Part shown: positions 27,616 through 42,868 of the stretch, one piece after another
How the letters are laid out: the number at the start of each line of letters is the position of its first letter
Position numbering within the stretch: the first letter of the stretch is position 1
Origin: an uncultured Bacteroidota bacterium
GTDB lineage: Bacteria; Bacteroidota; Bacteroidia; 2-12-FULL-35-15
Length of the DNA: 42,868 nt
Assembly: GCA_903847205.1 (NCBI GenBank)
Contig: CAINDA010000043.1
Location: forward strand, 1 to 42,868
Direction of reading: 5' to 3'
The notes under the pieces: model-generated
Databases searched by the model: none
What the model was told of the DNA's origin: nothing
Seen by the model: only the letters and a program-made list of their open reading frames with translations
Position numbers and translations under genes: made by a program

Positions 27616-30600
27616 TCACCTAACCAATGTAACAGTTCCTTTGTAGCTGTGTTTCCGCTGGTTAAAATCTGTGATTTTTATTGAATAGATATACACATCT
27701 CTCTGTGCGATATCCGCACCGTGATTGGCCCTGCCATCCCAGCCTTTATTTTTATCATCAGAATAAAATATCAGATTTCCCCAGCGGTCGAATATCATCA
27801 TTTCGTATTCTTTTATAAATATGCCTTTCCCGTTAAAGGTGTCGTTTACCCCGTCATCATTGGGTGTGAAGGAGTTTGGAATATAAAATAAAAAATCCGG
27901 TTCTATTGTGATGGTCTGATAAGCCGTATCAACACAGTTGTACTGAGTTGATACAATCTGTCTTATTAAGTAAGTGCCTGTATCTGCATAGGTATGCGGG
28001 TTAGGATTGTGTATTGATGTTGTATCCTGATCACCGAAATTCCAGTGCCAGTAATTTGCTCCGATAGATTTATCTGTTATTGTTATAACAGGATTAACTA
28101 TGCTGGCACTGCTTGGCAATGCTGTAAAACCTGCTATCGGCATGGGATACACAGTGATGTAATGAGTTTTTGTTTTTGTACTTACGCAGCCGCTGTCGGA
28201 AGTAACCGTTAATGTTACATCTAAGAGGTTAGGTGCAAAAACTGAATCATTATGATAGCAGTGAAAAGGGCTCTGTCCGCTTCCTGCGGAACTTTGGTCG
28301 CCGTAATTCCACACAAAAACAGTATTTGTTCCAGGGTTTACGGTAGAAGTATTTTGGAAAGTGACGCATAAAGGTTCACAGCCGATACTGTCGTTCCTTG
28401 TAAAACTGACAATTGGATTGGGATTGACGGTTACTGCCCGTATCACTGAATCTACACAGCCGAAGTTAGATGTAATAAACAGCTGAACCGGGTATACACC
28501 TGCTGAACCATATAAGTGAGAGTTGTTTTGAGCAGCACTAAAAGCACTGTTATCAGCATAGTTCCAGCGCCAGCTGTGAATAGTATCGCTTGGCGCAATG
28601 TAAGAAGAATCGGCAAACTGAACTGCTGTTCCATTACATACATCCAATGCATAAATGCGTGCGTGAGGAAGCGGATGAACTACTGTATTTTTTACGATTG
28701 TATCTTTGCAGCCGTAAGCGCTCGTTACTATTAATGTTACAGGACGTGTGCCCGGATTGGCATACAGGTGGCTGGGATTAGGGTTGCCGTTCGGAGAAGT
28801 GCCGTCACCGAAATTCCAGGAGTGCGCTGCGATGCTTCCGCTCGATATTCTTGAACTGTCATTAAAAATCATCGGCTGGTTTAAACATACATTGCTGAAG
28901 CTGTAACCCGCAACAGGCATAGGGTACACTGTAATGCTGTCTTTAAGAGTGTCGGCACAGCCAAGGTTAGAAGAGCGTGTTATCAGGGTTACCTGGTAAT
29001 GACCAGGCAGGAGATAATGATGAACAGGGCTCCATACTGTTGTGTTAAGTCCGCTGTTATCGCCGTAATTCCATGTCCAGCTTGCTGTACTTCCCATTAC
29101 AGGAGGAATTGTTGTATTGCTGAATACAGCTGAATCAAACAAACAGATATTATTTTTACTGAAGGCCGATTGGGGAGCATCATAGGTTTTCACAGCATGG
29201 GTCATTGCATTGGAACAGCCTTTTGTTGTTCTGCTTAACAGGGTTGCATTGTAAGTGCCGGACAGGCTGTAGTAATGAGCGGGACTGGCTGTACTGCCTG
29301 TTGGGCCGTTATCTCCAAACACCCATAAATAAGCTGCCAGAGAATCCGGAAGAGTTACTGCACTGGTATTGGTAAAGTGAAGACTGTCGCCTAAACAGAC
29401 ATCAACACGACTGAAATCCGCGACAGGGTTGTAATATACACGTATAGGTTTTGTTATGGTATCGGCACAGCCGAAATTATTTCCAACAATCAAAGTAACA
29501 TTATACATGCCTCCGCTTGCATACAATCGGGAAGGGTTTTGAATAGTGCCTAAGGGGCTGGCATCGCCGTAATTCCAGTTCCATGCAGTGATGGTTCCTA
29601 AAGCTGTTGTGGATGTATCTCTGAACTGTGTTGCGAGGCCCTGGCAGACGCTGGTATTCTTAAAATCAGCCACAGGATTAGGATGTACAATTATTGTTTT
29701 AGTAATAGAATCGGAACAGCCGAAATTTGAAACATCAATCAGCTGAACGGTATATGAACCGGGCAATGCATACAAGTGTGTTGTATTGGTTGTTATTACC
29801 GGCGCTGTGGCGTCGCCGAAATTCCAGTGCCAGGTATGAATTGTATCGGTTGGGAGAATGCTGGATTGATCATTGAAATGAGCAATGTTTTGGTCGCAGA
29901 CGTCTGATGTATTAAAGTAAACAACAGGAAGAGGATGAACCACAATGTTTTTAACAATAGTGTCTTTACAGCCGTTATTACTTGCGGCTATTAAAGTAAC
30001 AACGTAAGTTCCAGGGCTTGAATAAATATGGCCCGGACTCTGAATAGTGCTGAAAGGCGTGCCATCGCCAAAGTTCCATGACCAGCCGGTTATAGAACCG
30101 CTTGAAACTATTGAGGAATCATGAAAATTGACAGACCGGGTTAAACAGACATCCTTAAAACCAAACTTAGCAGCCGGTTTTGGGTATATGTTTATTTTTA
30201 TTGAATCGGTATGAAAACAGCCTGAAGAATCAGTAACAGTGAGAGCGTATATTGAATTAATATGCGGGCATGCTGTTGGATTAGGCGAAACAGCGCTGCT
30301 CAAACCAGCTGCAGGTGCCCATAAATAAGTATAAGGAGGAACGCCTCCTGTTACAGAAGGTGCAGCGCCGATGACTGTGCAAAACCCAGGACATACTGAT
30401 ACATCAGGGCCGGCATGAGCTTTCAGGGCATTTTTCACTATTATAATATTTGCAGCAGCCTGAGAAAATACCCATGCAGGTTCGGCAGTATATTGTGCAG
30501 CACTTGGAGATGGCACTTCCTGAGCCGCAACAAGCAGGAACAATGTATCAGGGCAGGGCATAACAATACTCTGAGTCCAGGCTGTACCATAGCTGCTGAT

Positions 30601-32313
30601 GGTTGTTAAGAGCTGCCAGGGTTTTGAAATCGGCTTCAGATAAATGCGTATGGCCTGCCCGTTACCAGTGCCTGTTAATGTAAAAGACCTTGCAGCATAA
30701 TGCGTGGTGTCAGTACTTGGGCCGATGTAAGATGTGGAACTGTTAGCGCCGGGAGCAGGGTTTATGGTCGGCACAGTTGTAAAAGGGCCGTCAATCCTGA
30801 CTCTGCCGGCACCGCCGGAGCCGCCTTGTCCGCCGCCGCCAACACCGCCGGGACCGCCCAATACCTCAGTAGTTCCGGTTCCGAGTGAATTCAGTTTTCC
30901 GCTGAGTGCAATACCCCCGCCAGATCCGCCGCCGCCGCCTCTGTAGCCGCCGCAGCCATTTATTCCAACACCTCCGTCGGCGCTTATAGTTGCAGGAGAT
31001 ATGATAGAAGAAGATAAAAATGCATGAAATGCAGCAGCTCCCCCGCCGCCGCCGCCGCCTCGGGATGCACCTGAACCAACTACTCCCGCACTCCCACCGC
31101 CGCCTCCTGAAAAAGGCACCATTTGATCATTTCCATTAGATTTCCCGTTTTCGGATGTTCCGGGAGTAGTACCATCCGAACCAAATCCGCCGCCGCCGTA
31201 GCCGCCGCCGGCACCGCCATATCCCCCGGCCCCGCTTACTGAGCCGCTTGATCCGAATGGATGGCCGGTACCGCCTGAACCAAATCCCTGATCCGCGCCG
31301 CAGATTGTTAAGCCTTCGCCTCCGGGAACACCATTTAAGGAAATACCACCGGTACCAGGCATAGCGCATGGAGGTGGAGTTGAACCTGTTCCGGCTCCAG
31401 GCTGCTCCCCGCGAAGCAGTTCTGCACCTCCGCCGGTATATCCAGTACCCGGGCGGTTGGTGCCGCCTGAACTTGAGCAATTGACCCACGACTCTGTTCC
31501 GCCCCCGCCTCCGCCAGGCGCCCCGTCTGTATTCTGCCCTCCGGGCGCATTCAGGGAAACCGAAGCTCCCTGATCTATAAAAACTCTTCCCCTGCTTATT
31601 ACATTTATCGGCAGAAAACCCTGATTCCCGGCTGTACCCGGGTCACAATCGGATGTGCTTACGGTTACATTGGCTCCGCTGTTAAACTGCAGATCACTTA
31701 CTATCATTGCTCCCCGGCGGGAACGTATGCCTCCTGCTCCTCCTCCGCCAAGGGTAACAGCACCTGAAGTAATAATTGCCGGCTGCGGCTGAACAATATA
31801 AAATGTATCGGCATTAGAAAAACTGGTACTGTTTAATACTACCTGCAATGGAATACGATAGGCTGGTAAAAGAAGCTGCCAGTCGGCTGAATTGGGGCTT
31901 ACTCCGGGCATTACAAATACCTGGGCAGAAACCATTTTACCATTCCAGCTTACACTTACAGGCCCTATTTTTATTTTGTTTGTATCACTGCTGCTGGCGC
32001 AGATAAGGCGTACTGCATCTCCCGCATTATTTGAATAAATACCATCGGCACCGAAATTAGCATTCTGATTATATGGGCCGATAATTTCAACATACGTGTT
32101 CTGGCCTGCAGAGCCTATATCAGGGATAATGTAAGAAATGGTCTGAGAGAAAATCGGATGGGTTAAGAATAAAAAAACAAAAGCGTTTATAAAAACAATT
32201 TTTTGAAAAGAGTGAATAGGCCGCATGCCGAAATAAAAACGCTTCCGCTTTATTTCTTCCTGCCCGAAAGAAGATGAGATGTATTTGTAATATGTTTTTT
32301 CAAGTGTTTTCAT
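27616..32313 (-). CDS. glycine-rich/PKD-repeat surface protein with T9SS type B sorting domain
   Basis: A 1565-residue secreted protein. A signal peptide (FQKIVFINAFVFLFLTHPIFSQ) follows a 30-residue basic leader; a second start, M30 at 32226, would give a plain signal peptide. Residues ~55-180 form a beta domain, and ~185-515 are strikingly Gly-rich (runs such as GGGGGGTES and GGGGGGGAAAFHAF) and may form a parallel beta-helix. About ten PKD domains follow, each opening with VC and with a WNFGD or WNYGD core and a GC before the last strand. The last ~90 residues (FYIPNSFTPNDDGVNDTF ... KGTVTLVR) are the gliding-motility-type sorting domain (T9SS type B). Cell-surface adhesion or a fibre is likely. 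Repeated Cys pairs suggest one disulfide per PKD domain. Confidence 0.9.
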   Translation of the reverse strand: MKTLEKTYYKYISSSFGQEEIKRKRFYFGMRPIHSFQKIVFINAFVFLFLTHPIFSQTISYIIPDIGSAGQNTYVEIIGPYNQNANFGADGIYSNNAGDAVRLICASSSDTNKIKIGPVSVSWNGKMVSAQVFVMPGVSPNSADWQLLLPAYRIPLQVVLNSTSFSNADTFYIVQPQPAIITSGAVTLGGGGAGGIRSRRGAMIVSDLQFNSGANVTVSTSDCDPGTAGNQGFLPINVISRGRVFIDQGASVSLNAPGGQNTDGAPGGGGGGTESWVNCSSSGGTNRPGTGYTGGGAELLRGEQPGAGTGSTPPPCAMPGTGGISLNGVPGGEGLTICGADQGFGSGGTGHPFGSSGSVSGAGGYGGAGGGYGGGGFGSDGTTPGTSENGKSNGNDQMVPFSGGGGGSAGVVGSGASRGGGGGGGAAAFHAFLSSSIISPATISADGGVGINGCGGYRGGGGGSGGGIALSGKLNSLGTGTTEVLGGPGGVGGGGQGGSGGAGRVRIDGPFTTVPTINPAPGANSSTSYIGPSTDTTHYAARSFTLTGTGNGQAIRIYLKPISKPWQLLTTISSYGTAWTQSIVMPCPDTLFLLVAAQEVPSPSAAQYTAEPAWVFSQAAANIIIVKNALKAHAGPDVSVCPGFCTVIGAAPSVTGGVPPYTYLWAPAAGLSSAVSPNPTACPHINSIYALTVTDSSGCFHTDSIKINIYPKPAAKFGFKDVCLTRSVNFHDSSIVSSGSITGWSWNFGDGTPFSTIQSPGHIYSSPGTYVVTLIAASNNGCKDTIVKNIVVHPLPVVYFNTSDVCDQNIAHFNDQSSILPTDTIHTWHWNFGDATAPVITTNTTHLYALPGSYTVQLIDVSNFGCSDSITKTIIVHPNPVADFKNTSVCQGLATQFRDTSTTALGTITAWNWNYGDASPLGTIQNPSRLYASGGMYNVTLIVGNNFGCADTITKPIRVYYNPVADFSRVDVCLGDSLHFTNTSAVTLPDSLAAYLWVFGDNGPTGSTASPAHYYSLSGTYNATLLSRTTKGCSNAMTHAVKTYDAPQSAFSKNNICLFDSAVFSNTTIPPVMGSTASWTWNYGDNSGLNTTVWSPVHHYLLPGHYQVTLITRSSNLGCADTLKDSITVYPMPVAGYSFSNVCLNQPMIFNDSSRISSGSIAAHSWNFGDGTSPNGNPNPSHLYANPGTRPVTLIVTSAYGCKDTIVKNTVVHPLPHARIYALDVCNGTAVQFADSSYIAPSDTIHSWRWNYADNSAFSAAQNNSHLYGSAGVYPVQLFITSNFGCVDSVIRAVTVNPNPIVSFTRNDSIGCEPLCVTFQNTSTVNPGTNTVFVWNYGDQSSAGSGQSPFHCYHNDSVFAPNLLDVTLTVTSDSGCVSTKTKTHYITVYPMPIAGFTALPSSASIVNPVITITDKSIGANYWHWNFGDQDTTSIHNPNPHTYADTGTYLIRQIVSTQYNCVDTAYQTITIEPDFLFYIPNSFTPNDDGVNDTFNGKGIFIKEYEMMIFDRWGNLIFYSDDKNKGWDGRANHGADIAQRDVYIYSIKITDFNQRKHSYKGTVTLVR

Positions 32314-32581: not shown

Positions 32582-32759
32582 CGTTCTCGACTCCGCTCGA
32601 ACTGGAGAAAACGAATTACGTGTTGTCATATTGAGCTTGTCGAAATATGTGCGCTGGCTTCCCAAACACTTCGACAAGCTCAGTGTGACCTGCCCATTTC
32701 GACATTTTTCCCCTTTGCCTGACAGCGCGCGTTTGTCAGTTCGAGCGGAGTCGAGAACG
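32582..32759. repeat. nested inverted repeats, REP/BIME-like composite
   Basis: An outer perfect 23-base inverted repeat (32582-32604 and 32737-32759; core CTCGACTCCGCTCGAACTG) encloses a second, inner repeat (32624-32644 and 32670-32689, core TTGAGCTTGTCGAA, two mismatches). The inner core recurs near 41081-41123. Nested arms of unrelated sequence suggest one mobile palindrome inserted in another. Confidence 0.75.
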
Positions 32760-34039: not shown

Positions 34040-34071
34040 TCTGAATAGAAAAAAAGCTTCTTTTAGGTGAA

Positions 34072-34376
34072 AAACACCTCCCATGAGAAGAAAGACATCT
34101 CTCATGAGATGGAAGACATCTCTCATGGGATGTGAGACATCTCACATGGGATGTGAGACATCTCTCATGAGATGGAAGACATCTCACATGGGATGTGAGA
34201 CATCTCTCATGAGATGAAAGACATCTCACATGGGATGGAAGACATCTCTCATGGGATGGGAGACATCTCTCATGAGATGGAAGACATCTCTCATTGGATG
34301 GGAGACATCTCTCATGAGATGGGAGACATCTCTCATGGGATGAGAGACATCTCACATGAGATTTGAGACATTTTTC
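34072..34376. repeat. 21-bp tandem repeat (minisatellite), about 14 units
   Basis: Thirteen contiguous units start at 34093, 34114, and every 21 bases to 34345, each AGACATCTC followed by a CATGRGATG variant and a 2-3 base tail. A degenerate unit precedes them at 34072 and a partial one follows at 34366. Each unit contains CATCTC...GAGATG arms, so each can form a small hairpin. The period is two helical turns. Units differ by a few bases, so the array is old or evolving in register. One minus-strand frame stays open through it (RCLPSHE heptads), but this follows automatically from a 21-base period. Confidence 0.9.
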
Positions 34377-34427: not shown

Positions 34428-34736
34428 GAGTTGTTTATATCTCCTGTATTTACCATCTACATCACTGAAAACTGCTGCTGTTTTTGTAAAACATTGTTTT
34501 CTTTCTGCGGGGTAATTTCACTCTCCTGCCTTTTTAAAACCGCCTTCCATTCCTATTTTATTTTTATTCTAAATAGGCAGCCAATCGGCTGTCCTGCTTC
34601 ATTAAAATAGCTCTTACTAAATTATTTTGTTTTCAATGACTGGGCAAAATGCATAGAAATTCGGTATTCAGTTTGGATAATCCGTTTATTGGGGATAGGT
34701 TTGCGTAGGGGAAAATATCAAATAAAATTAGACAAC

Positions 34737-36974
34737 ATGTCAAGCTGGAAAGAATTAGAAGATAATATTAAGAAAATCGCACAACTAAAATGGAATTGTT
34801 CCGCAAATCCTGAAACCATAAATGGTGTTAATTTTGACTGTGTTTTAAAGCCCGAAAATGGCAAATGGATTATTATTGAGGCTTCTGAAAACCAAGCCTT
34901 AGACAAGGTAAGAACAGATATTGCGAAACATAATGCGTGCCGATTTGCCTTAATTTCTAAAGGAATTTATGTTACAAATTACATCGTCCTAAAAGATCAA
35001 CCGACATTATCCATGCAGACAACGGGCAATGAAAATTACGTTAAAGTATTATCGTATAAAACATTTTCGAATGAATTTATTGATTTCCAATCCTATTCTC
35101 ATTTAAGGTCACAAAAAATTTTTGGTAGCTCTGTTAATCCATTTTCAGGGAAAATGGATGCCATTAAATATACACCTGTGTATTATGAATTAATTACACC
35201 AAAGAAGGAAATTGTTTTAAAGGATATTACAAAACATCTATTAGAAAATAAAAACATTGTTCTAATAGGTAATTATGGAACGGGTAAAAGCAGATGTATA
35301 AGAGAGTTATTTCAGCAATTGATTAAACTTAATCTAGATAATAATAAATTTATTTATCCTATAGCAATTAATTTAAAAGACAATTGGGGCACAAAGCGCG
35401 CTGAGGAAATAATTCGTAGACACTTCGATGATTTAGGAATTAGCGACACTTCTGATTCAATTATTAAGTTATTAGACAGTGAAAATTTAGTGTTTTTATT
35501 GGATGGATTTGATGAAATTGGAGCTCAAATTTGGAGTGAAGACTCTTCTAAATTACAACAAATAAGATCGGCTTCGTTAAGCGGAATAAAAGACTTAATA
35601 AATAAAACCAATGGATCAGTAATAATAACAGGTCGCGAACACTATTTTAATACTCATAGTGAAATGTTAAAAGCCTTGGGTCTTTCAAATATAACAAACC
35701 CTCCATTACTCATAAAATGCAAGGATGAATTTAGTGAGGCTGAGATGCAAAACTATTTAAAGAGTTTGTCCAAATACATAAACCTGCCAAACTGGTTGCC
35801 CAGACGGCCCTTAATCTGCCAAATAATCAATGAATTAGATACAGCAGTAGTTGAAAAACTATTTATAGACAGTTCTAACTCTATTGAATTTTGGCAAACA
35901 CTTATGGAGAATATTTGTGATAGAGAATCAAGGATACATTCCATATTGGATTCTGAAATAATTTTCAAAATTTTTGAAGAAATCGCAGAAATTACTAGAG
36001 TGAAAGTTGATAATTTAGGCCCGTTAAGTGTATCCGAAATTAATTCTGCTTTTGAAAAAGTAGTTGGTACCCCTCCTGTAGATGAATCTGCAGTAATGCT
36101 ACAACGCCTGCCAGCATTGGGTAGAATTTCTTCAGAAAGCAGAGATCGTCAATTTATAGATTTCTACATACTGGATGGCCTTAGAGCTAAAAATCTAATC
36201 AAATATGTAGAAACCTTAGATTACACTATTTTAAATACAAAATGGAAAAACCATCTTGGAATTTTAGGCATTGAACTTATTTCTCACAGAATTAGTTTAC
36301 AAAAATCGGCCAATATATATTTTGAATATTTAAAACAATCATTGCAATGTCCGAACAAAATGATTTCAGGCGATATTTTAGCGGCACTAATTGTTTCTGC
36401 TAAGAACAAAATATTTGATTTGGATAATTTAAAGATTAAAGACACCGAAATTTCAGTAATTAATTTATCAAGAAGCTTAATTGACAATTTTACTATAGAA
36501 GATTCAATAATTGATATAATTGATATTTCAAATTCTGGTTCTTGCAATATAACAATTAAAAGTTGTATCATTACCACAGTCCACGGGGTCAAATCTCAAG
36601 CAGAACTACCTGATTTTATGGTTGAAAACGAAATTGAAAATTACATTGAAACCTCTATAGCATCTGAGGAATCATATGATTTTACGCCCTCCCAAATGGT
36701 CTTCATTTCCTTAATTAAAAAAATTTATTTATCATCCTCCAAGGGTAAATTGGAAACAGAATTACTTAATACATGCGGAGGTAATGGGAATAAAGACATT
36801 GCAATAAAGATTTTAACACTTTTGACAAAAGAAAAAATAATTGGTAAATCTCATGAAAAGGCTGAGACTAAATATAATTATAAAGGATTTCATGAGCAGA
36901 AAATTTTAAAAATTTTAAATGAATTAACATCGTCTAAAGATGACCTTTGGTCTCAAATTTCAAATATAAAATAA
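34737..36974 (+). CDS. NACHT-family STAND NTPase with nuclease-like N-terminus (bNACHT candidate)
   Basis: A 745-residue cytoplasmic protein. Residues ~1-120 look like a PD-(D/E)XK-type domain (NGVNFDCVLKPENGKWIIIEAS; D34, E48-x-S50), though the usual Lys is replaced by Ser. The NACHT NTPase follows: Walker A GNYGTGKS at 178-185, Walker B LVFLLDGFDE at 251-260 (with the D-G-x-D-E NACHT feature), a sensor strand SVIITGREHYF, and a helical NACHT C-terminal part with LPRRPLICQII. Residues ~540-640 contain short beta repeats (IKDTEISVINLSRSLIDNF), and the end is a winged-helix-like region (GNKDIAIKILTLLTKEKIIG). Bacterial NACHT proteins include single-gene anti-phage systems. The gene is visibly more A+T-rich than its neighbours, suggesting transfer. 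I use ATG 34737, not the upstream TTG. Confidence 0.85.
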   Translation: MSSWKELEDNIKKIAQLKWNCSANPETINGVNFDCVLKPENGKWIIIEASENQALDKVRTDIAKHNACRFALISKGIYVTNYIVLKDQPTLSMQTTGNENYVKVLSYKTFSNEFIDFQSYSHLRSQKIFGSSVNPFSGKMDAIKYTPVYYELITPKKEIVLKDITKHLLENKNIVLIGNYGTGKSRCIRELFQQLIKLNLDNNKFIYPIAINLKDNWGTKRAEEIIRRHFDDLGISDTSDSIIKLLDSENLVFLLDGFDEIGAQIWSEDSSKLQQIRSASLSGIKDLINKTNGSVIITGREHYFNTHSEMLKALGLSNITNPPLLIKCKDEFSEAEMQNYLKSLSKYINLPNWLPRRPLICQIINELDTAVVEKLFIDSSNSIEFWQTLMENICDRESRIHSILDSEIIFKIFEEIAEITRVKVDNLGPLSVSEINSAFEKVVGTPPVDESAVMLQRLPALGRISSESRDRQFIDFYILDGLRAKNLIKYVETLDYTILNTKWKNHLGILGIELISHRISLQKSANIYFEYLKQSLQCPNKMISGDILAALIVSAKNKIFDLDNLKIKDTEISVINLSRSLIDNFTIEDSIIDIIDISNSGSCNITIKSCIITTVHGVKSQAELPDFMVENEIENYIETSIASEESYDFTPSQMVFISLIKKIYLSSSKGKLETELLNTCGGNGNKDIAIKILTLLTKEKIIGKSHEKAETKYNYKGFHEQKILKILNELTSSKDDLWSQISNIK

Positions 36975-37039
36975 AAATCAAAAGGCGAATTATTATCTCT
37001 CCGTTAAGGGTTGCGAGTCAAAATGAAATTAGAATTTAT

Positions 37040-37084
37040 TAAGCGCAGCGTCCCCCTCCGCTTTATTTAACCGGCATCTTGCCG
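37040..37084. repeat. direct repeat copy A at the left of the ATPase-RNase cassette
   Basis: TTAAGCGCAGCGTC and, after a short divergent stretch, TTTAACCGGCATCTTGCC. A diverged copy B lies at 37151-37196 (TTTAACAGGCATCTTTCC). Copy C is at 42620-42664 with an almost identical core. All three have the same orientation. Confidence 0.75.
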
Positions 37085-37150
37085 AATTAATATTTCAAAT
37101 AAACAATAGCAATAAGAGCGGCAGTTTCACCGTTATGCAATAAACAAACA

Positions 37151-37196
37151 CAGCATGCTTGTTCCGCTCCGCTATATTTAACAGGCATCTTTCCGA
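37151..37196. repeat. direct repeat copy B
   Basis: GTTCCGCTCCGCTA followed by TTTAACAGGCATCTTTCC; a degenerate member of the family seen at 37040-37084 and 42620-42664. Two copies 110 bases apart, on the left side only, suggest repeated insertion or recombination. Confidence 0.6.
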
Positions 37197-37223
37197 TAAA
37201 CAATATTAATTGCAAAATATTTT

Positions 37224-37251
37224 TTTGCCTGCAATTGAGAATATATATTTA
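37224..37251 (+). promoter_or_regulatory. putative promoter of the YD/AAA+ gene
   Basis: TTTG at 37224-37227 and TATATTTA at 37244-37251 resemble the -33/-7 pair, but the 16-base spacing is short and the last base of the -7 box does not match. It is 32 bases upstream of the ATG. Confidence 0.3.
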
Positions 37252-37282
37252 CACTCTCGTTCAATATCTAAATCAGTACAGC

Positions 37283-39709
37283 ATGAAAACAAAAAAAATG
37301 AAAACTCCAAAACCAGCCGCTATTGAAGCAAAAAAAACGGATGCCGAGCAAAACGGATTAACAGGAAAAGTAAAACAGGTGCAGCGAACCTGTTATAAAG
37401 CTCATTTAAAAGCAGGCATGGTTGTTCAGGGTAAAATTGAACTTACTTCTACTTTCGGGCTCTCCAATGAGATATGCACCTATAATATTAATGGACAAAA
37501 AATAAAAGAACAGAACTTTAACCAATTTGGAACAGATATTAAAGTAATCAACGATAAAGGCCAGCTTACTGAAATGAGTAATTATAATAATGAGGGCGGC
37601 CTAAGAACCAAACTAATCTTTATATATAATGAACAGGGAAAACAGCTGGAATCTATCAGCCGCCTTGCCGATGGAAGTTTATTTTACAGAACCGAAGAAA
37701 AATATGATGAGCAGGGAAAACATATAGAACATTTACAATATTCGGGAGTGGAAGAACGAATCATCAGCCATGAAATTCATTCTTATAATGAGAAAGGAAA
37801 CCTGGTTTCGCTGATTGATTATAACATTGATGGCAGCATTAAAAGCCAATGGCTTCACAAATATGATGAACAAGGCAGGGCTATTGAACAAATAAGAGAA
37901 TATACAGCCAAAGAAAACCTTCGTTCTAATACAAAACAAACATATAAATACAACCAGCACGGCGATTGCACCGAAATGATTTATTATAAATTTGATGGAA
38001 GTATAGATCTATCTTTAACTTTTATCTATAAATATAATGAACATGGCAATCGCATTGAAACATCAACTTATAGAAATGGAAATTTAGAAGCCACTCATAT
38101 TATTGAATATGACAGCGAAGACCAAATGATTGTTCATAAACCTAAGGATCGTGAAGAGCTGGAAGACCAGATGGATGAAAAATCGGCAGTAAAAACCAAA
38201 CAATATGAATATGATTCACATGGCAACTGGATTAAGAAAACTATATTTTACAAAAAAATCCCCAGCAATATACTTATCCGTGAAATAACTTATTGGGATG
38301 AATCATCATTAAATGAGATGCCATTAGTCAATAGTCATTTGTCATTAGGCAGCGTACCAATAACCATTGACCAATCCACTAATGTACCAATGACTAATGA
38401 ACCAACAACCGATGAACCAAAAACTAATGAACTAATTCATCCGCTCTCTTATACAAAAGATATAATAAACACAAGCAACCCGCTCGACGAATTAACCGAA
38501 CAACAGGCACAATGGCTGGTGGATGCTCCAAATGCAACACCTGATAATTTCCCTGCTCTGCGGTATTATGCAATGCTTAATAAAGAAGCACCATCCATTA
38601 TCAGTTATTCAGGAGACTATGAAGCCCTCGCCCTGCTTCACGACCTCAAAGGAGTAATGACGGCACAGATTGTTAATACCTACACTACCGTAAGGGATGG
38701 AAATGCAAAACAATTGACCCGCTATACCCTCAGTTTTTCCTGCTATGGCGGATACTTGCTTTGCGCCACAGGTCTCGTTGCACGTTATGAAGAAGAATTT
38801 GATATACCTCATTACCTATCGCTGAGTGATGAATATAGAGGCTATGGCAATGTTTATACAAGCCAATTGCAATTCTACTGCCCAAGCGATGCTTCAGGCA
38901 AACGCGATAAGGAGTTTGAAGAGGAGGTTGGCCGGCTGATTGAAAGGTGCCTGCTCTCTAAAAAGCCTGATAAGCCTACCATTCAAATAATAGAAGTCAG
39001 AAACCAGAATTTCGCGATGGTAGAACACCAGGTAAATGATAATTTCGAAATAAGGGATTTAGATGTAAATTATGGTTTTGGCTTTGCTAAGTTTCATAAT
39101 GACCTGATGCATCGGTTTAATACCAGCACCAAGGGATTAGTGCTTTTTCACGGATTGCCGGGCACAGGCAAAACCTATTACATACGCCACCTGCTCAAAA
39201 AAATGGCTTCGGGCAGTAAAGTAGTTATTTATATTCCGCCAAATATGGTTGATCATTTGGTCGAACCCAGCTTTATGACCTTTCTGGCGGATGAAGTAAA
39301 AAGCTGGAACGACGAAGGAAAGTTTTGTGTACTGCTTATCGAAGACGCCGAACCGCTGCTTGCAAAACGGCAGGAAGGAGTGCGTATACAGGGCGTTACA
39401 AACCTGCTCAATATGAGCGATGGTATTCTAAATGATATGCTCAACATGCAGATCATTTGTACTTTTAATGTGGATTTAAAAAAATTAGACAGCGCCCTTC
39501 TTCGCCCCGGACGATTAATTGCAAGAAAAGAGTTTAAAGCTTTGAGTGAATTAGATGCCAATATATTAGCGCAGCGCCTTGGCATAAAACATCATTTTAA
39601 AAAGCCGATGACCTTAAGTGAAATCTATGCCTTGTTAGAAAACAAAAACACCCTTATTCATGATGTGGAATCAGAAAAAGGCGCCTCAACAGCTATTGAT
39701 GATTTATAA
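37283..39709 (+). CDS. YD-repeat / AAA+ ATPase fusion
   Basis: An 808-residue protein with no signal peptide. Residues ~50-320 are a run of RHS/YD-type repeats (KYDEQGKHIEHLQYS, SYNEKGNLVSLIDYN, KYDEQGRAIEQIREY, KYNEHGNRIETSTY), normally found in secreted polymorphic toxins but here apparently cytoplasmic. A Thr/Asn/Pro linker follows at ~365-395 (PMTNEPTTDEPKTNE), then an unknown ~200-residue domain (PLDELTEQQAQWLVDAP onward). The C-terminal AAA+ module has Walker A GLPGTGKT at ~624-631, Walker B VLLIEDAEPLL at ~681-691, sensor 1 IICTFN, and RPGR at ~740-743. I start at ATG 37283; the upstream TTG (37235) lies in the promoter. It heads a three-gene cassette with an unknown protein and an NYN/PIN RNase. 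I infer a sensor-effector role. Confidence 0.85.
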   Translation: MKTKKMKTPKPAAIEAKKTDAEQNGLTGKVKQVQRTCYKAHLKAGMVVQGKIELTSTFGLSNEICTYNINGQKIKEQNFNQFGTDIKVINDKGQLTEMSNYNNEGGLRTKLIFIYNEQGKQLESISRLADGSLFYRTEEKYDEQGKHIEHLQYSGVEERIISHEIHSYNEKGNLVSLIDYNIDGSIKSQWLHKYDEQGRAIEQIREYTAKENLRSNTKQTYKYNQHGDCTEMIYYKFDGSIDLSLTFIYKYNEHGNRIETSTYRNGNLEATHIIEYDSEDQMIVHKPKDREELEDQMDEKSAVKTKQYEYDSHGNWIKKTIFYKKIPSNILIREITYWDESSLNEMPLVNSHLSLGSVPITIDQSTNVPMTNEPTTDEPKTNELIHPLSYTKDIINTSNPLDELTEQQAQWLVDAPNATPDNFPALRYYAMLNKEAPSIISYSGDYEALALLHDLKGVMTAQIVNTYTTVRDGNAKQLTRYTLSFSCYGGYLLCATGLVARYEEEFDIPHYLSLSDEYRGYGNVYTSQLQFYCPSDASGKRDKEFEEEVGRLIERCLLSKKPDKPTIQIIEVRNQNFAMVEHQVNDNFEIRDLDVNYGFGFAKFHNDLMHRFNTSTKGLVLFHGLPGTGKTYYIRHLLKKMASGSKVVIYIPPNMVDHLVEPSFMTFLADEVKSWNDEGKFCVLLIEDAEPLLAKRQEGVRIQGVTNLLNMSDGILNDMLNMQIICTFNVDLKKLDSALLRPGRLIARKEFKALSELDANILAQRLGIKHHFKKPMTLSEIYALLENKNTLIHDVESEKGASTAIDDL

Positions 39710-39723
39710 GTCCCGCCGGCCGG

Positions 39724-39793
39724 GATTTGCAATCACAGCTAAAGAGCAGGGGATTTAAGATACAGCCCAATACAGGGGCTGGGATTGCAAATC
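39724..39793. repeat. inverted repeat in the gap after the AAA+ gene
   Basis: GATTTGCAATC at 39724-39734 and its exact inverse GATTGCAAATC at 39783-39793, next to a CCCGCCGGCCGGG palindrome at 39712-39724. It is unrelated to the other palindromes of the region and is not followed by a T tract, so I treat it as a REP-like element rather than a terminator. Confidence 0.55.
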
Positions 39794-39906
39794 TAAAATA
39801 ACGGTTACTAAGATATTCATCAGAAAGACTTAGGATAAGATAAAGTGTCAGCATTGCATTAAGGTTCACTTACAATAAAACAAATTTATACCGTTTATAT
39901 ATTACC

Positions 39907-41031
39907 ATGGAATCAAGTATCACCATAATTGACAAAGAAAAAACAAAGGTTAGCCCTGAAGCCAATATACGCTTACTTTGGGCTGCACTGATCATGTGCG
40001 AATCTGTTAATAGCTGCTGTGAGCCCACTCAATTATTAAATTTGGTGCTGGAATTTGACACATTGCCTGAAAAGATGAAATTCAGCCTTTATGTTTTGAT
40101 GAATAAAAAAAATCCCGAGGTAAGTGATGAAAATATAAAAGCAATGGAAACATATTATGCCCAATTAGCAAGTTCAAGAAAGATGAAAGGCAAAAATCAG
40201 GCATTTATTGTTTTGCAGATGCAGGGCGAAAAATGGATTAAAAATTGTTTACACGATTATAAATCATGGGTAATTGATACTTGTGCCTTTCATAAAATTG
40301 ATCCTTTGATCCCCCTTACTACAACCGATATGGAAAAATGGGATAAGCCGCTGCTAATATTTCATTTTCCGCATCAAGATACTGAAAAACGCAATCGTGA
40401 GCGAATTGTATTTTTTTCGGGAGCTGTAACTGATCTTTGCCAATTCCCATTATTTGATTCAATGATCTGCAAATTATTCAATCACGATGAATTTAATGTT
40501 GTAAAAACCGAAGGCTATATTAATAAGTTCCTTCAGTTTTTCAATGGCGGCGAATCCAAGGATATAAATAATAGCAGCGTACATTTTATTTCTGATTTCC
40601 TTTTTGAAATGCCAGAGCCCTTTGGCCTTACCGCTTCACAGATTCACCTGGTCAGAAATGATTTCAGTAAAACCTCATGGAAACTTTTTGAGGAAATGAA
40701 AAAGATGAATGAAGAAATGAAAGAGATTCCTTTCGGACAGGCTTCTATTGAAAAGCTTGTTACAATGTATAATTCAAGGGTAGGCCCCTTTAAGCCGCTG
40801 CTTCAAAAAACAGTGGATGAAAACCCCTGCTTTGCGCAATTGAAAAATGAAAATCCGAAAGGAAAAGTTTACCGCATTCACGCTGGTATAAGTTCCTACG
40901 CCAACATTATTGATTTTTATAAAGAACTTGATATTATCAATACAAGTGAAGTTATGTATATACGTGAGCACATGGCCGAAACCATGAATATAAACAATTC
41001 CAGATTATTTTTGTTTCTCGAAACAGTTTAA
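39907..41031 (+). CDS. unknown 374-residue protein, middle gene of the cassette
   Basis: I do not recognise this protein. It has no signal peptide or membrane segment. The N-terminal ~100 residues are helical with a cysteine cluster (LIMCESVNSCCEPTQLL). The middle is alpha-beta (WDKPLLIFHFPHQDTEKRNRERIVFFSGAV), and a charged helix (KLFEEMKKMNEEMKEI) lies at about 260-280. The C-terminus ends HMAETMNINNSRLFLFLETV. Length and codon use look normal, and it lies between the AAA+ and RNase genes on the same strand, with 197- and 154-base gaps that carry palindromes. A structural or sensor subunit is conceivable; I assign no function. Confidence 0.75.
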   Translation: MESSITIIDKEKTKVSPEANIRLLWAALIMCESVNSCCEPTQLLNLVLEFDTLPEKMKFSLYVLMNKKNPEVSDENIKAMETYYAQLASSRKMKGKNQAFIVLQMQGEKWIKNCLHDYKSWVIDTCAFHKIDPLIPLTTTDMEKWDKPLLIFHFPHQDTEKRNRERIVFFSGAVTDLCQFPLFDSMICKLFNHDEFNVVKTEGYINKFLQFFNGGESKDINNSSVHFISDFLFEMPEPFGLTASQIHLVRNDFSKTSWKLFEEMKKMNEEMKEIPFGQASIEKLVTMYNSRVGPFKPLLQKTVDENPCFAQLKNENPKGKVYRIHAGISSYANIIDFYKELDIINTSEVMYIREHMAETMNINNSRLFLFLETV

Positions 41032-41070
41032 ACAAATTATGGATCAGTGTCTTTTTTTAAGAAGCCATCG

Positions 41071-41130
41071 CGCATATTTCGACAAGCTCAATATGACCTG
41101 CGCTAAGCCAGTCTGAGCTTGTCGCAGACT
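41071..41130. repeat. REP-like palindrome before the RNase gene
   Basis: GACAAGCTCA (41081-41090) and TGAGCTTGTC (41114-41123) form an inverted repeat, with a second overlapping stem AGTCTG/CAGACT (41110-41115 and 41125-41130). The core GAGCTTGTC is the one found in the inner arms at 32624-32689, so both belong to one family. Confidence 0.65.
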
Positions 41131-41185
41131 GTGGGGAGGTAAGACAATTTTAAATAATGCCATTGCAATTGCACATTAATAAATT

Positions 41186-42604
41186 ATGAAACAGTTCGAA
41201 CATATAGAAGCAGCCGATTTTACCGGATTTCCATGCATAGAATCAACCGACATTATCGGGCTGAGTCATCTGGCAGAAGCTAATCAGGTAAAGTTTGTTT
41301 TCCGCAAAGGCGCAAAGGATAAAGAGTCGGCACCCGAAGAATTTTTCTTTCATATCGGCAATGTGGTTTATAAAATAAAAGCAAACGATTATATTTTTCT
41401 GCATGACTACTTCAATGCCGTTGAAAAAAAGTTCCCTGCCGCACATGAATATTATGAAGCGGTAAAAGGCGGCTTTGATTCTTATGAGGAATTCAAATAC
41501 AGCAAAAACGCTGGCAGCGCGGATATGGAAACATTTAAGGAAATGAAATCCGCCGGCTTCGACAAAGGCTTTGATGCTTTCACTAAAAAGTACAGCAAAT
41601 ACAAATCCTATAAACATACCTCCATTATTGATGAGGATATTGATTCTCCTTTAAAACTTTATGAATACGCCAAACGTAAAGGATTCCTGAACTATAACTC
41701 TTTTGAAAAATCGTATGACGCAGGCTATCCCGAAATGGCTATTTACAATGAAGCTGCTGCCAAAGGATTCAAAAGTTCCGATGATTTTTTTGATGCCGTA
41801 AACAAAGGCTTCTCCCTCCCTACAGAATATGAACTTGCCAAAGAAAAAATGATTGGCAGCAAAAAAGAATATGATGATTACTCTTTTCTTAAATCAGGTA
41901 ACTTCCGCAATTTAGGATTTGATGAATTTCAGCTCCTGCAGCTGCTGAAAGAATTCGAGAATGGGAAAAAACTTTCTTTCAAACAGCTGCGAAATGATCT
42001 TGATTTAAAGCAGGAAAAATACAAACGTACTTTCAATGGCAGCGATGTGAAGGTGCTCCCCATGTGGTATTCGCAGCGGATAACAACTGATGAGCAATTA
42101 GATAATTTTCTCCGCACAAATGAAGAAACTAAAAAATCAGGTACTTACGATTATAGAGAAAAAACATTTGAGATCTTAATCAAAAGCAAAACCAAAGTAT
42201 ATATAGATGCAAGCAATGTGGCGCATAACACCGCCAGTTCTAAAAACATTCTCTATAAAAATATCCGTTTGGTTATAGAGGAGCTTGCTATCTGGAATTT
42301 CACCGACATTGTGGTTATAGCAGATGCTTCTCTCAGGCACAAGGCAAAGGATACAGATGAATTGGATAAAGTTAAAAAACTTGCCGAGTACCACGAATCC
42401 CCTTCGCATACCAGCGCGGATAAATTTTTACTCGATCTTATTCATCATGATAAATGTATTATTGTTAGTAATGATACATTCAGCGATTGGCAGAAAAAAG
42501 ATTATTGGATTCGTGTAAACATTGATAAAATGCGCATCCCTTTCCTTATTAAAGACAATAAAGTGATATTGCATGGGATTGAAAAACATATTACTAAGGA
42601 TTGA
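41186..42604 (+). CDS. helical-repeat protein with Zc3h12a-like NYN/PIN ribonuclease domain
   Basis: A 472-residue protein. After a ~75-residue N-terminal domain, residues ~85-230 hold imperfect ~20-residue repeats with the pattern Y/F-x-x-A-x-x-x-G-F (YYEAVKGGFDSYEEF, FKEMKSAGFDKGFDAF, YEYAKRKGFLNYNSF, YNEAAAKGFKSSDDF), likely a helical solenoid. The C-terminal ~140 residues match the Zc3h12a/Regnase-type NYN (PIN-fold) RNase: VYIDASNVAHN at ~338-348 (first Asp), DIVVIADASLRH, SADKFLLDLI at ~409-418 and CIIVSNDTFSDW at ~424-435 (catalytic acidic residues). All four acidic positions are present, so it should be active as a metal-dependent RNase. It lies last in the cassette. Confidence 0.85.
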   Translation: MKQFEHIEAADFTGFPCIESTDIIGLSHLAEANQVKFVFRKGAKDKESAPEEFFFHIGNVVYKIKANDYIFLHDYFNAVEKKFPAAHEYYEAVKGGFDSYEEFKYSKNAGSADMETFKEMKSAGFDKGFDAFTKKYSKYKSYKHTSIIDEDIDSPLKLYEYAKRKGFLNYNSFEKSYDAGYPEMAIYNEAAAKGFKSSDDFFDAVNKGFSLPTEYELAKEKMIGSKKEYDDYSFLKSGNFRNLGFDEFQLLQLLKEFENGKKLSFKQLRNDLDLKQEKYKRTFNGSDVKVLPMWYSQRITTDEQLDNFLRTNEETKKSGTYDYREKTFEILIKSKTKVYIDASNVAHNTASSKNILYKNIRLVIEELAIWNFTDIVVIADASLRHKAKDTDELDKVKKLAEYHESPSHTSADKFLLDLIHHDKCIIVSNDTFSDWQKKDYWIRVNIDKMRIPFLIKDNKVILHGIEKHITKD

Positions 42605-42619
42605 TGTGAAGTCATCCGT

Positions 42620-42664
42620 TAAGCCCAGCGTCTCGCTGCGCTTGCTTTAACCGGCATCTTGCCA
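42620..42664. repeat. direct repeat copy C at the right of the cassette
   Basis: TTAAGCCCAGCGTC, then GCTTTAACCGGCATCTTGCC; the end of this block is identical to copy A (37040-37084), 5.6 kb to the left and in the same orientation. The two copies bound the AAA+, unknown and RNase genes. Confidence 0.75.
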
Positions 42665-42702: not shown

Positions 42703-42868
42703 TTATCTCACCAATGTTACAGTCCCCTTATAGCTGTGTTTCTTGTTTTTAAAATCAGTAACACTTATTGAATAAACATACACATCCCGCTGTGATGTCT
42801 CTGTTCCATGATTCGCTTTGCCATCCCATGGTTTAGTAATATCATCGGTAAAGAAAATTAAATTACCC
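42703..42868 (-). CDS. T9SS type B sorting domain, 3' end of a surface protein (partial)
   Basis: The window ends inside this gene, so only its last 54 codons are seen. They read GNLIFFTDDITKPWDGKANHG then QRDVYVYSISVTDFKNKKHSYKGTVTLVR. This is the gliding-motility-type C-terminal domain that targets proteins to T9SS. It is a close paralogue of the end of the 1565-residue gene at 27.6-32.3 kb, same strand. What precedes it cannot be seen. Confidence 0.9.
   Translation of the reverse strand, partial: GNLIFFTDDITKPWDGKANHGTETSQRDVYVYSISVTDFKNKKHSYKGTVTLVR

What the first reader, a model, noticed from the sequence alone, without database searches (positions are those of the whole stretch)
37040..42664. 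Three-gene AAA+ / unknown / NYN-RNase cassette between direct repeats
A YD-repeat/AAA+ fusion, an unrecognised 374-residue protein and a solenoid protein with a Zc3h12a-type RNase domain lie in one orientation. Near-identical direct repeats bound them at 37040-37084 and 42620-42664. An ATPase plus RNase next to an immune-type NTPase fits the logic of anti-phage systems: the ATPase or repeats sense, the RNase cuts. I know of no named system with this combination, so it is a candidate new one. The function is inference.
Basis: partly seen in the sequence, partly recalled or inferred. Interest (0 to 1): 0.85.

Follow-up and report, generated by a model that had tools for sequence, protein, structure and literature searches.

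The report
Conserved RNase and partner gene pair
The claimed three-gene cassette is really a conserved two-gene unit, an RNA-cutting enzyme and an unknown fast-changing partner protein, with an unrelated ATPase gene beside it; the partner may control the RNA cutter, but its role is untested.

Summary
The three ORFs are real. The trio is not a unit and the repeats are not its ends. The "near-identical" repeats are 87% alike and belong to a hairpin family with about 20 copies in the genome, lying 3' of genes. The AAA+/YD gene is an independent multi-copy family: it sits beside the other two genes in 2 of 23 loci, on opposite sides, and was not found in the genomes of the two closest relatives of the pair.

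What is conserved is a two-gene operon. The 374-residue protein (U374) lies immediately upstream of the NYN RNase in 20 of 23 loci (median gap 19 bp). The RNase joins a solenoid of 14-residue helical repeats to a Regnase/KHNYN-type NYN domain (Z 17.4); four candidate catalytic aspartates are invariant in 21 of 21. U374 folds confidently (pLDDT 89.7) without a clear PDB or viral match, evolves much faster than the RNase, and occurs in up to four tandem copies beside one RNase.

Best reading, partly inferred: a partner-controlled ribonuclease. A conflict role is possible (the window and the closest relative lie beside defence-type genes) but not shown: no relative was found on phages, plasmids or viral contigs.

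The parts
39907..41031 (+). U374: unknown 374-aa partner protein, first gene of the conserved pair
   Evidence: ORF; immediately upstream of the NYN gene in 20 of 23 loci; AF2 model pLDDT 89.7, pTM 0.86; best Foldseek E 0.47 in PDB, 0.39 in BFVD
41186..42604 (+). NYN ribonuclease: small N-terminal alpha/beta domain, solenoid of 14-residue helical repeats, C-terminal Zc3h12a/Regnase-type NYN domain
   Evidence: PF11977 E 6.9e-13 and in 21 of 21 family members; Z 17.4 to 3v34 (MCPIP1) over 139 residues, 2.4 A; D341, D380, D412, D430 invariant in 21 of 21
41393..41905 (+). solenoid of 14-residue repeats, residues 70-240 of the NYN protein
   Evidence: period 14/28 in sequence; helices in the model; profile found in 2 of 395 phylum genomes, both times in this NYN family
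37235..39709 (+). YD-repeat/AAA+ protein: neighbouring stand-alone gene, judged not part of the module
   Evidence: PF00004 and PF05593; multi-copy family in 7 of 36 genus genomes, in varied contexts; beside the pair in 2 of 23 loci
34689..36974 (+). NACHT/nSTAND3 NTPase: upstream neighbour, not part of the module
   Evidence: PF20720 E 4e-7, PF05729 E 1.3e-6; G+C 30.6% against 38.3% for the window
37039..37083 (+). copy of a dispersed hairpin repeat, 3' of the NACHT gene
42619..42663 (+). copy of the same dispersed hairpin repeat, 3' of the NYN gene

Best explanation
A two-gene operon of Bacteroidota encodes a ribonuclease and its dedicated control partner. Shown by sequence and models: the second gene is a Regnase/KHNYN-type NYN nuclease with its acidic active-site residues intact, carried behind a helical solenoid. 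The first gene encodes a folded alpha/beta-plus-helices protein (U374) that in every genome where I found it lies next to that RNase gene, diverges far faster than the RNase, and is sometimes present in two or four copies beside one RNase. Inferred: U374 binds the solenoid half of the RNase and either holds it inactive or brings it to its RNA or to a trigger; on the trigger the NYN domain cuts RNA. Fast evolution and duplication suggest that U374 is the part that meets a changing target. The AAA+/YD protein and the flanking hairpin repeats are not components.
For: Pairing: 20 of 23 NYN loci have U374 directly upstream on the same strand; gaps -17 to 154 bp, median 19. In 395 phylum genomes the U374 profile finds only G000 and G310, and in G310 the NYN gene follows 14 bp later. 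In 59 relatives the one match without the NYN gene checked is a 61-residue fragment in G015:C1 (E 7e-4). RNase: PF11977 in 21 of 21; PDB profile hits to ZC3H12A/B/C and KHNYN; Z 15.7-17.4 to eleven entries of those proteins; aspartates invariant. Partner: confident model; mean pairwise identity 20.2% against 39.8% for the RNase protein and 50.9% for its NYN domain over 136 locus pairs, lower in 136 of 136. Copies: four in L093, two in L094, one on each side of the RNase in L105. By eye the U374 and NYN trees share their two main clades.
Against: No interaction, activity or regulation was tested and no complex could be modelled. L109 has the RNase with no detectable U374 in 9 kb upstream; L096 and L097 are cut 391 and 188 bp upstream. 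In L091 the U374 frame carries an in-frame TAG while the RNase is intact. So the RNase can apparently exist without an intact partner. hhalign finds no relation between the two proteins. Neither is basic overall: net charge of the solenoid is 0 to -12 in 21 of 21 and of U374 negative in 21 of 23, so neither offers an obvious RNA-binding surface by net charge.
Confidence: 0.55

Rival explanations
1. Two-gene conflict (anti-phage or abortive-infection) system: U374 senses an invader or is removed by it, and the NYN RNase then degrades RNA. A narrower, functional version of the best explanation.
For: Patchy presence: 6 of 36 genus genomes and 2 of 395 phylum genomes. The window lies beside a NACHT/nSTAND3 gene. 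The closest relative L091 lies within 5 kb of a PDC-M21A/B pair (E 2.9e-50, 6.2e-56), a truncated type I restriction R gene, a PIF1-type helicase and a HipA_C-domain kinase gene with a helix-turn-helix gene. Fast-evolving, duplicated partner.
Against: Of 127 neighbours from 21 loci, the PADLOC hits at 1e-10 that I traced outside L091 are generic: PIF1 helicase in L097, ABC-type ATPases in L098, L104, L109, a pVip hit in L095; a few hits were not traced. None of 9 window-clade neighbours outside L091 that were scanned matches at 1e-3. No relative in viral contigs, plasmids or phages. In four Chitinophagaceae-clade loci (L099, L100, L102, L111) the pair stands next to the same ordinary genes (named by eye).
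Confidence: 0.28
2. Ordinary RNA-processing or decay enzyme with an adaptor subunit, inherited vertically in some Chitinophagaceae-like lineages and occasionally transferred.
For: Shared neighbourhood in L099, L100, L102 and L111; Rae1/YacP and PRORP, both cellular RNases, are among the structural matches (Z 8.8 and 13.0); no sign of mobile elements carrying it.
Against: Absent from most genomes of its own genus and phylum; partner evolves very fast and is duplicated.
Confidence: 0.25
3. Classical type II toxin-antitoxin pair with U374 as antitoxin and the NYN RNase as toxin.
For: Two genes, partner first, short gap, partner diverging faster than the nuclease.
Against: The RNase occurs without detectable U374 in L109 and with a stop in U374 in L091; both proteins are large; no plasmid or phage copies.
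Confidence: 0.1
4. The first reader's three-gene AAA+/unknown/RNase defence system bounded by direct repeats.
For: Two independent loci have all three families close together (window; L093). Given few copies of the AAA family per genome, this may be slightly more than chance.
Against: Order differs; 21 of 23 loci lack it within the held flanks; the closest relatives' genomes G450 and G451 gave no match; the AAA family occurs alone in varied contexts; the repeats are dispersed.
Confidence: 0.04

Closest known systems
Regnase/ZC3H12 (MCPIP) and KHNYN ribonucleases (Pfam PF11977)
   Same: C-terminal NYN/PIN-like domain: Z 17.4 over 139 residues at 2.4 A, 22-23% identity; conserved acidic residues
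   Different: No CCCH zinc finger or KH domain was found by Pfam; a 14-residue-repeat solenoid and a separate partner gene instead
PRORP (protein-only RNase P)
   Same: Helical-repeat N-terminal half plus C-terminal NYN-type nuclease; PF16953 matches 11 of 21 members (best 3.5e-7); Z 13.0 over 133 residues
   Different: Only the nuclease domain aligns; repeats are 14 residues long, not the roughly 35-residue PPR repeats (length recalled); no evidence of a tRNA role
CRISPR-associated NYN ribonuclease of Bacteroides fragilis (PMC11346440, passages seen)
   Same: A Bacteroidota NYN-domain RNase with a partly unclear role; there it is a Mn2+-dependent RNase with three aspartates in the probable active site
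   Different: That one belongs to a type III CRISPR locus and is proposed to trim crRNA; no cas gene was noticed beside the pair (by eye)
Rae1 (YacP) of Bacillus subtilis
   Same: Bacterial NYN-fold nuclease, Z 8.8
   Different: Single-domain enzyme of 170 residues or so, without solenoid or paired partner gene (recalled)

Membership tests
Zc3h12a/Regnase-type NYN RNases (PF11977) | NYN domain matching the family model above its cut-off | tested here: met
   49 bits against cut-off 23; 21 of 21 members match at 0.05
Zc3h12a/Regnase-type NYN RNases (PF11977) | conserved acidic active-site residues | tested here: met
   D341, D380, D412, D430 in 21 of 21; first and last motifs aligned to ZC3H12B
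Zc3h12a/Regnase-type NYN RNases (PF11977) | metal-dependent RNase activity | not testable with these tools
   needs purified protein
Regnase (animal ZC3H12) proper | CCCH zinc finger after the NYN domain | tested here: not met
   no further Pfam domain in the 472-aa protein at E 1, which ends right after the NYN domain
PRORP (protein-only RNase P) | PPR repeats of about 35 residues (length recalled) | tested here: not met
   repeat spacing is 14 residues; no PPR model matched at E 1
Type II toxin-antitoxin system | two-gene operon with a neutralising partner | tested here: inconclusive
   operon met; neutralisation untested
Type II toxin-antitoxin system | toxin gene not kept without an intact antitoxin gene | tested here: not met
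   L109 lacks U374, L091 has an in-frame stop in it; draft-assembly error not excluded
Known anti-phage systems (PADLOC-DB 2.0.0) | components match a PADLOC model convincingly | tested here: not met
   best hits for the four genes E 3e-4 to 0.02 to generic ATPase models, PDC-S02 at 0.018 for U374, none for the NYN protein
Mobile cassette bounded by direct repeats | repeats specific to the ends of the element | tested here: not met
   dispersed family, 20 places genome-wide; 22 of 23 copies 3' of a same-strand ORF
Three-gene AAA+/U374/NYN system | the three genes recur together | tested here: not met
   2 of 23 loci, in differing order

The most novel reading that the evidence does not exclude
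An undescribed two-part RNA-cutting immune or stress module in which U374 proteins, of a fold with no clear match in the PDB, serve as exchangeable sensors: one RNase is served by one to four fast-diverging U374 copies, each tuned to a different trigger.
Probability: 0.2. Interest if true: 0.75.

Novelty: new variant of a known kind. Interest (0 to 1): 0.42.

Why it matters
Regnase/KHNYN-type NYN nucleases are studied mainly in animals, where they cut immune and viral RNA. A bacterial two-gene module that joins such a nuclease to a new 14-residue-repeat solenoid and a fast-changing partner of unassigned fold would give a tractable system for how these nucleases are controlled, and possibly a new conflict module. 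It also corrects the record: the AAA+ gene and the repeats should not be annotated as part of it.

Tried and rejected
Direct repeats as cassette ends: rejected, dispersed hairpin family. An integron-attC-like reading (short imperfect palindrome, direct orientation) was considered; I did not search for an integrase, and position 3' of genes plus the hairpin fit a terminator/REP element better.

AAA+ as an obligate third part: rejected. The overlap of both families inside the genus is real but mostly one clade; 13 of 36 genus genomes are not in that tree (6 not sent, 7 without a full-length rpoB hit).

U374 as a YhcG/PDDEXK nuclease: E 0.0088 on 49 residues, in 1 of 23 members; rejected. A phage portal hit (phrog_16240, E 0.0014) was also taken as chance. 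Foldseek in PDB: 0 of 173 listed matches at E <= 0.001; VIA-align 2 best Z 5.3 on 77 residues of a helix bundle; BFVD 0 of 97 at 0.001. This does not show that the fold is new: only residues 49-129 were well tested, and AlphaFold DB was not available. U374 as a degenerate NYN relative: no support from hhalign (probability 0.3%).

The search for related loci with U374 alone in genome contigs found no relative; with the divergent U374 alignment it could not run. Dropped rows: the spirochaete NYN loci L112 and L113 (nuclease domain only) before the 23-locus count; L091 and L104 from pairwise comparisons where one of the two genes is broken; L096, L097, L109 where U374 is missing.

Literature: eight searches gave no paper that describes this pair; I saw listings, and passages of PMC11346440, PMC10853773, PMC3710099 and (no match) PMC3482391. 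The library lacks most subscription journals and bioRxiv, so absence is not proof.

Full report
Observation. The window is the whole 42,868-base contig C43 of a 5.49 Mb genome in 72 contigs. The gaps are 197 bp between the AAA+ gene and U374 and 154 bp between U374 and the NYN gene (coordinates). The second gap holds one of two palindromes GAGCTTGTCG in the window.

Repeats. The two copies are 87% identical over 45 bases, and a third weaker copy lies at 37150-37194. The same element occurs at 20 places in the genome at E <= 9e-8; its 18-base core has 23 matches with up to 2 mismatches against 0 for the reversed control. For 22 of 23 copies the nearest upstream ORF of 90 or more codons is on the same strand, usually within 120 bp; for one copy no such ORF was in view. 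The element folds as a hairpin. It does not delimit a cassette.

The AAA+/YD protein. Its AAA part and the domain before it find full-family matches (250 bits or more) in 7 of 36 genus genomes; 5 further genomes have only AAA-domain paralogues. The loci lie in many contexts, sometimes as tandem copies (L080, L081). Beside U374-NYN it is found in the window (upstream) and in G014:C300 = L093 (downstream, after a 242-aa ORF, and cut by the contig end). Of 16 pair-bearing genomes outside the genus, 3 (G458, G463, G464) have clear members and G459 a partial one; G450 and G451, which hold the closest relatives of the window pair, have none at E 0.001. Within the genus 5 of 6 pair genomes also carry the AAA family (P 3e-4 if independent). 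On an rpoB tree of 23 genus genomes one clade of seven holds 5 of the 6 pair genomes and 6 of the 7 AAA genomes; the window's genome is the only one outside it with either, and it has both. Shared descent explains most of the overlap.

The conserved pair. Searches gave NYN-protein relatives in 7 of 59 relatives (these counts include the window's own genome) and 23 loci in the genome collection, of which two spirochaete loci match only in the nuclease domain and were dropped. With the window and G310 this makes 23 loci. U374 is immediately upstream on the same strand in 20. L109 lacks it; L096 and L097 begin too close to the gene to tell. Gaps run from -17 to 154 bp, median 19. L093 has four U374 genes in a row before the RNase, L094 two, and L105 one on each side. 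In L091 U374 is interrupted by a stop, and in L104 the NYN gene is split into two ORFs. The record titles name Bacteroidetes, Chitinophagaceae and Chitinophagales metagenome bins, and some bins without a group.

The RNase. An AF2 model on 21 sequences has mean pLDDT 89.3, pTM 0.61, so the domains are better placed than their mutual arrangement. Residues 334-472 match MCPIP1, Regnase and KHNYN structures with Z up to 17.4, 139 residues, 2.4 A, and profile search of PDB sequences gives ZC3H12B/C/A and KHNYN. Four aspartates are invariant in 21 of 21. Residues 70-240 are 14-residue repeats of about one helix each; this part was found in 2 of 395 phylum genomes and there only in this family, and in no PDB sequence.

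The partner. An AF2 model on 23 sequences has pLDDT 89.7 and pTM 0.86: a mixed alpha/beta fold with an all-helical stretch at 39-128. No PDB or viral model match reached E 0.001, and VIA-align 2 gave only helix-bundle matches, best Z 5.3. Mean pairwise identity is 20.2% against 39.8% for the RNase from the same loci. One lysine (K94) is invariant in 23 of 23 and E108 is kept in 21. In 12 of 14 members of the Chitinophagaceae-type clade the protein ends in a tail of the form K-K/R/Y...I/V/L-D, seen in none of the other 9: a candidate docking peptide (inference).

Neighbourhood. L091 has a PDC-M21A/B pair, a truncated type I restriction gene, a PIF1-type helicase and a HipA_C gene with a helix-turn-helix gene within 5 kb. 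Elsewhere the PADLOC hits that were traced are a PIF1 helicase, ABC-type ATPases and a pVip hit in L095; AriA, mad2, GlgB-like and CARF-like hits were not traced. Nine further neighbours in L092-L095 gave none at 1e-3. No relative of the RNase was found in viral contigs, plasmids or phages; U374 was not searched there.

Mechanism. Shown: operon, intact nuclease, co-inheritance, fast partner. Inferred: the partner binds and controls the RNase, and the trigger is variable. I give 0.55 to the partner-controlled RNase in general, and treat conflict, housekeeping and toxin-antitoxin uses as narrower rivals within or beside it; they are not exclusive of it and need not sum to one with it.

Verdict. 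The three-gene cassette is not supported. The two-gene module is real, apparently unnamed, and of moderate interest: a known nuclease kind in a new arrangement with a partner of unassigned fold.

Noticed in passing
window 34689-36974: NACHT/nSTAND3 protein, G+C 30.6% against 38.3% for the window; its N-terminal 170 residues look by eye like a restriction-endonuclease-type domain (not confirmed by Pfam).
   Followed up: partly
window 34069-34371; also L048, L081, L082, L095, L100, L018 and others: Intergenic tandem arrays with a 21-base (or 42-base) period but different unit sequences recur in many of these Bacteroidota loci.
   Followed up: partly
window 37039-37083, 42619-42663 and about 18 more places in the genome: Dispersed hairpin repeat family, often several copies in one direction within 1-2 kb.
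   Followed up: partly
window 32633-32681 and 41080-41124: Second palindrome family (GAGCTTGTCG arms), the second copy between U374 and NYN.
   Followed up: no
L091 169-9301: Defence-type cluster around the closest relative of the pair, with U374 interrupted by an in-frame TAG.
   Followed up: partly
L080, L081, L078: YD/AAA+ family is multi-copy and sometimes in tandem; phage families phrog_14322 and phrog_33861 of unknown function match its AAA part.
   Followed up: no
L091 2546-4720, L096 1982-3852, L097 1799-4300: A PIF1-type helicase lies next to the pair or to the RNase in 3 of 23 loci.
   Followed up: no
L006 290-1443: The same 131-aa N-terminal-signal-like protein gene appears twice 731 bp apart, each followed by the dispersed hairpin.
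   Followed up: no
window 42707-42828: The contig end matches the 3' part of the PKD-repeat gene at 27616-32313 (76% over 124 bases), so the contig probably breaks in a repeated gene family.
   Followed up: no
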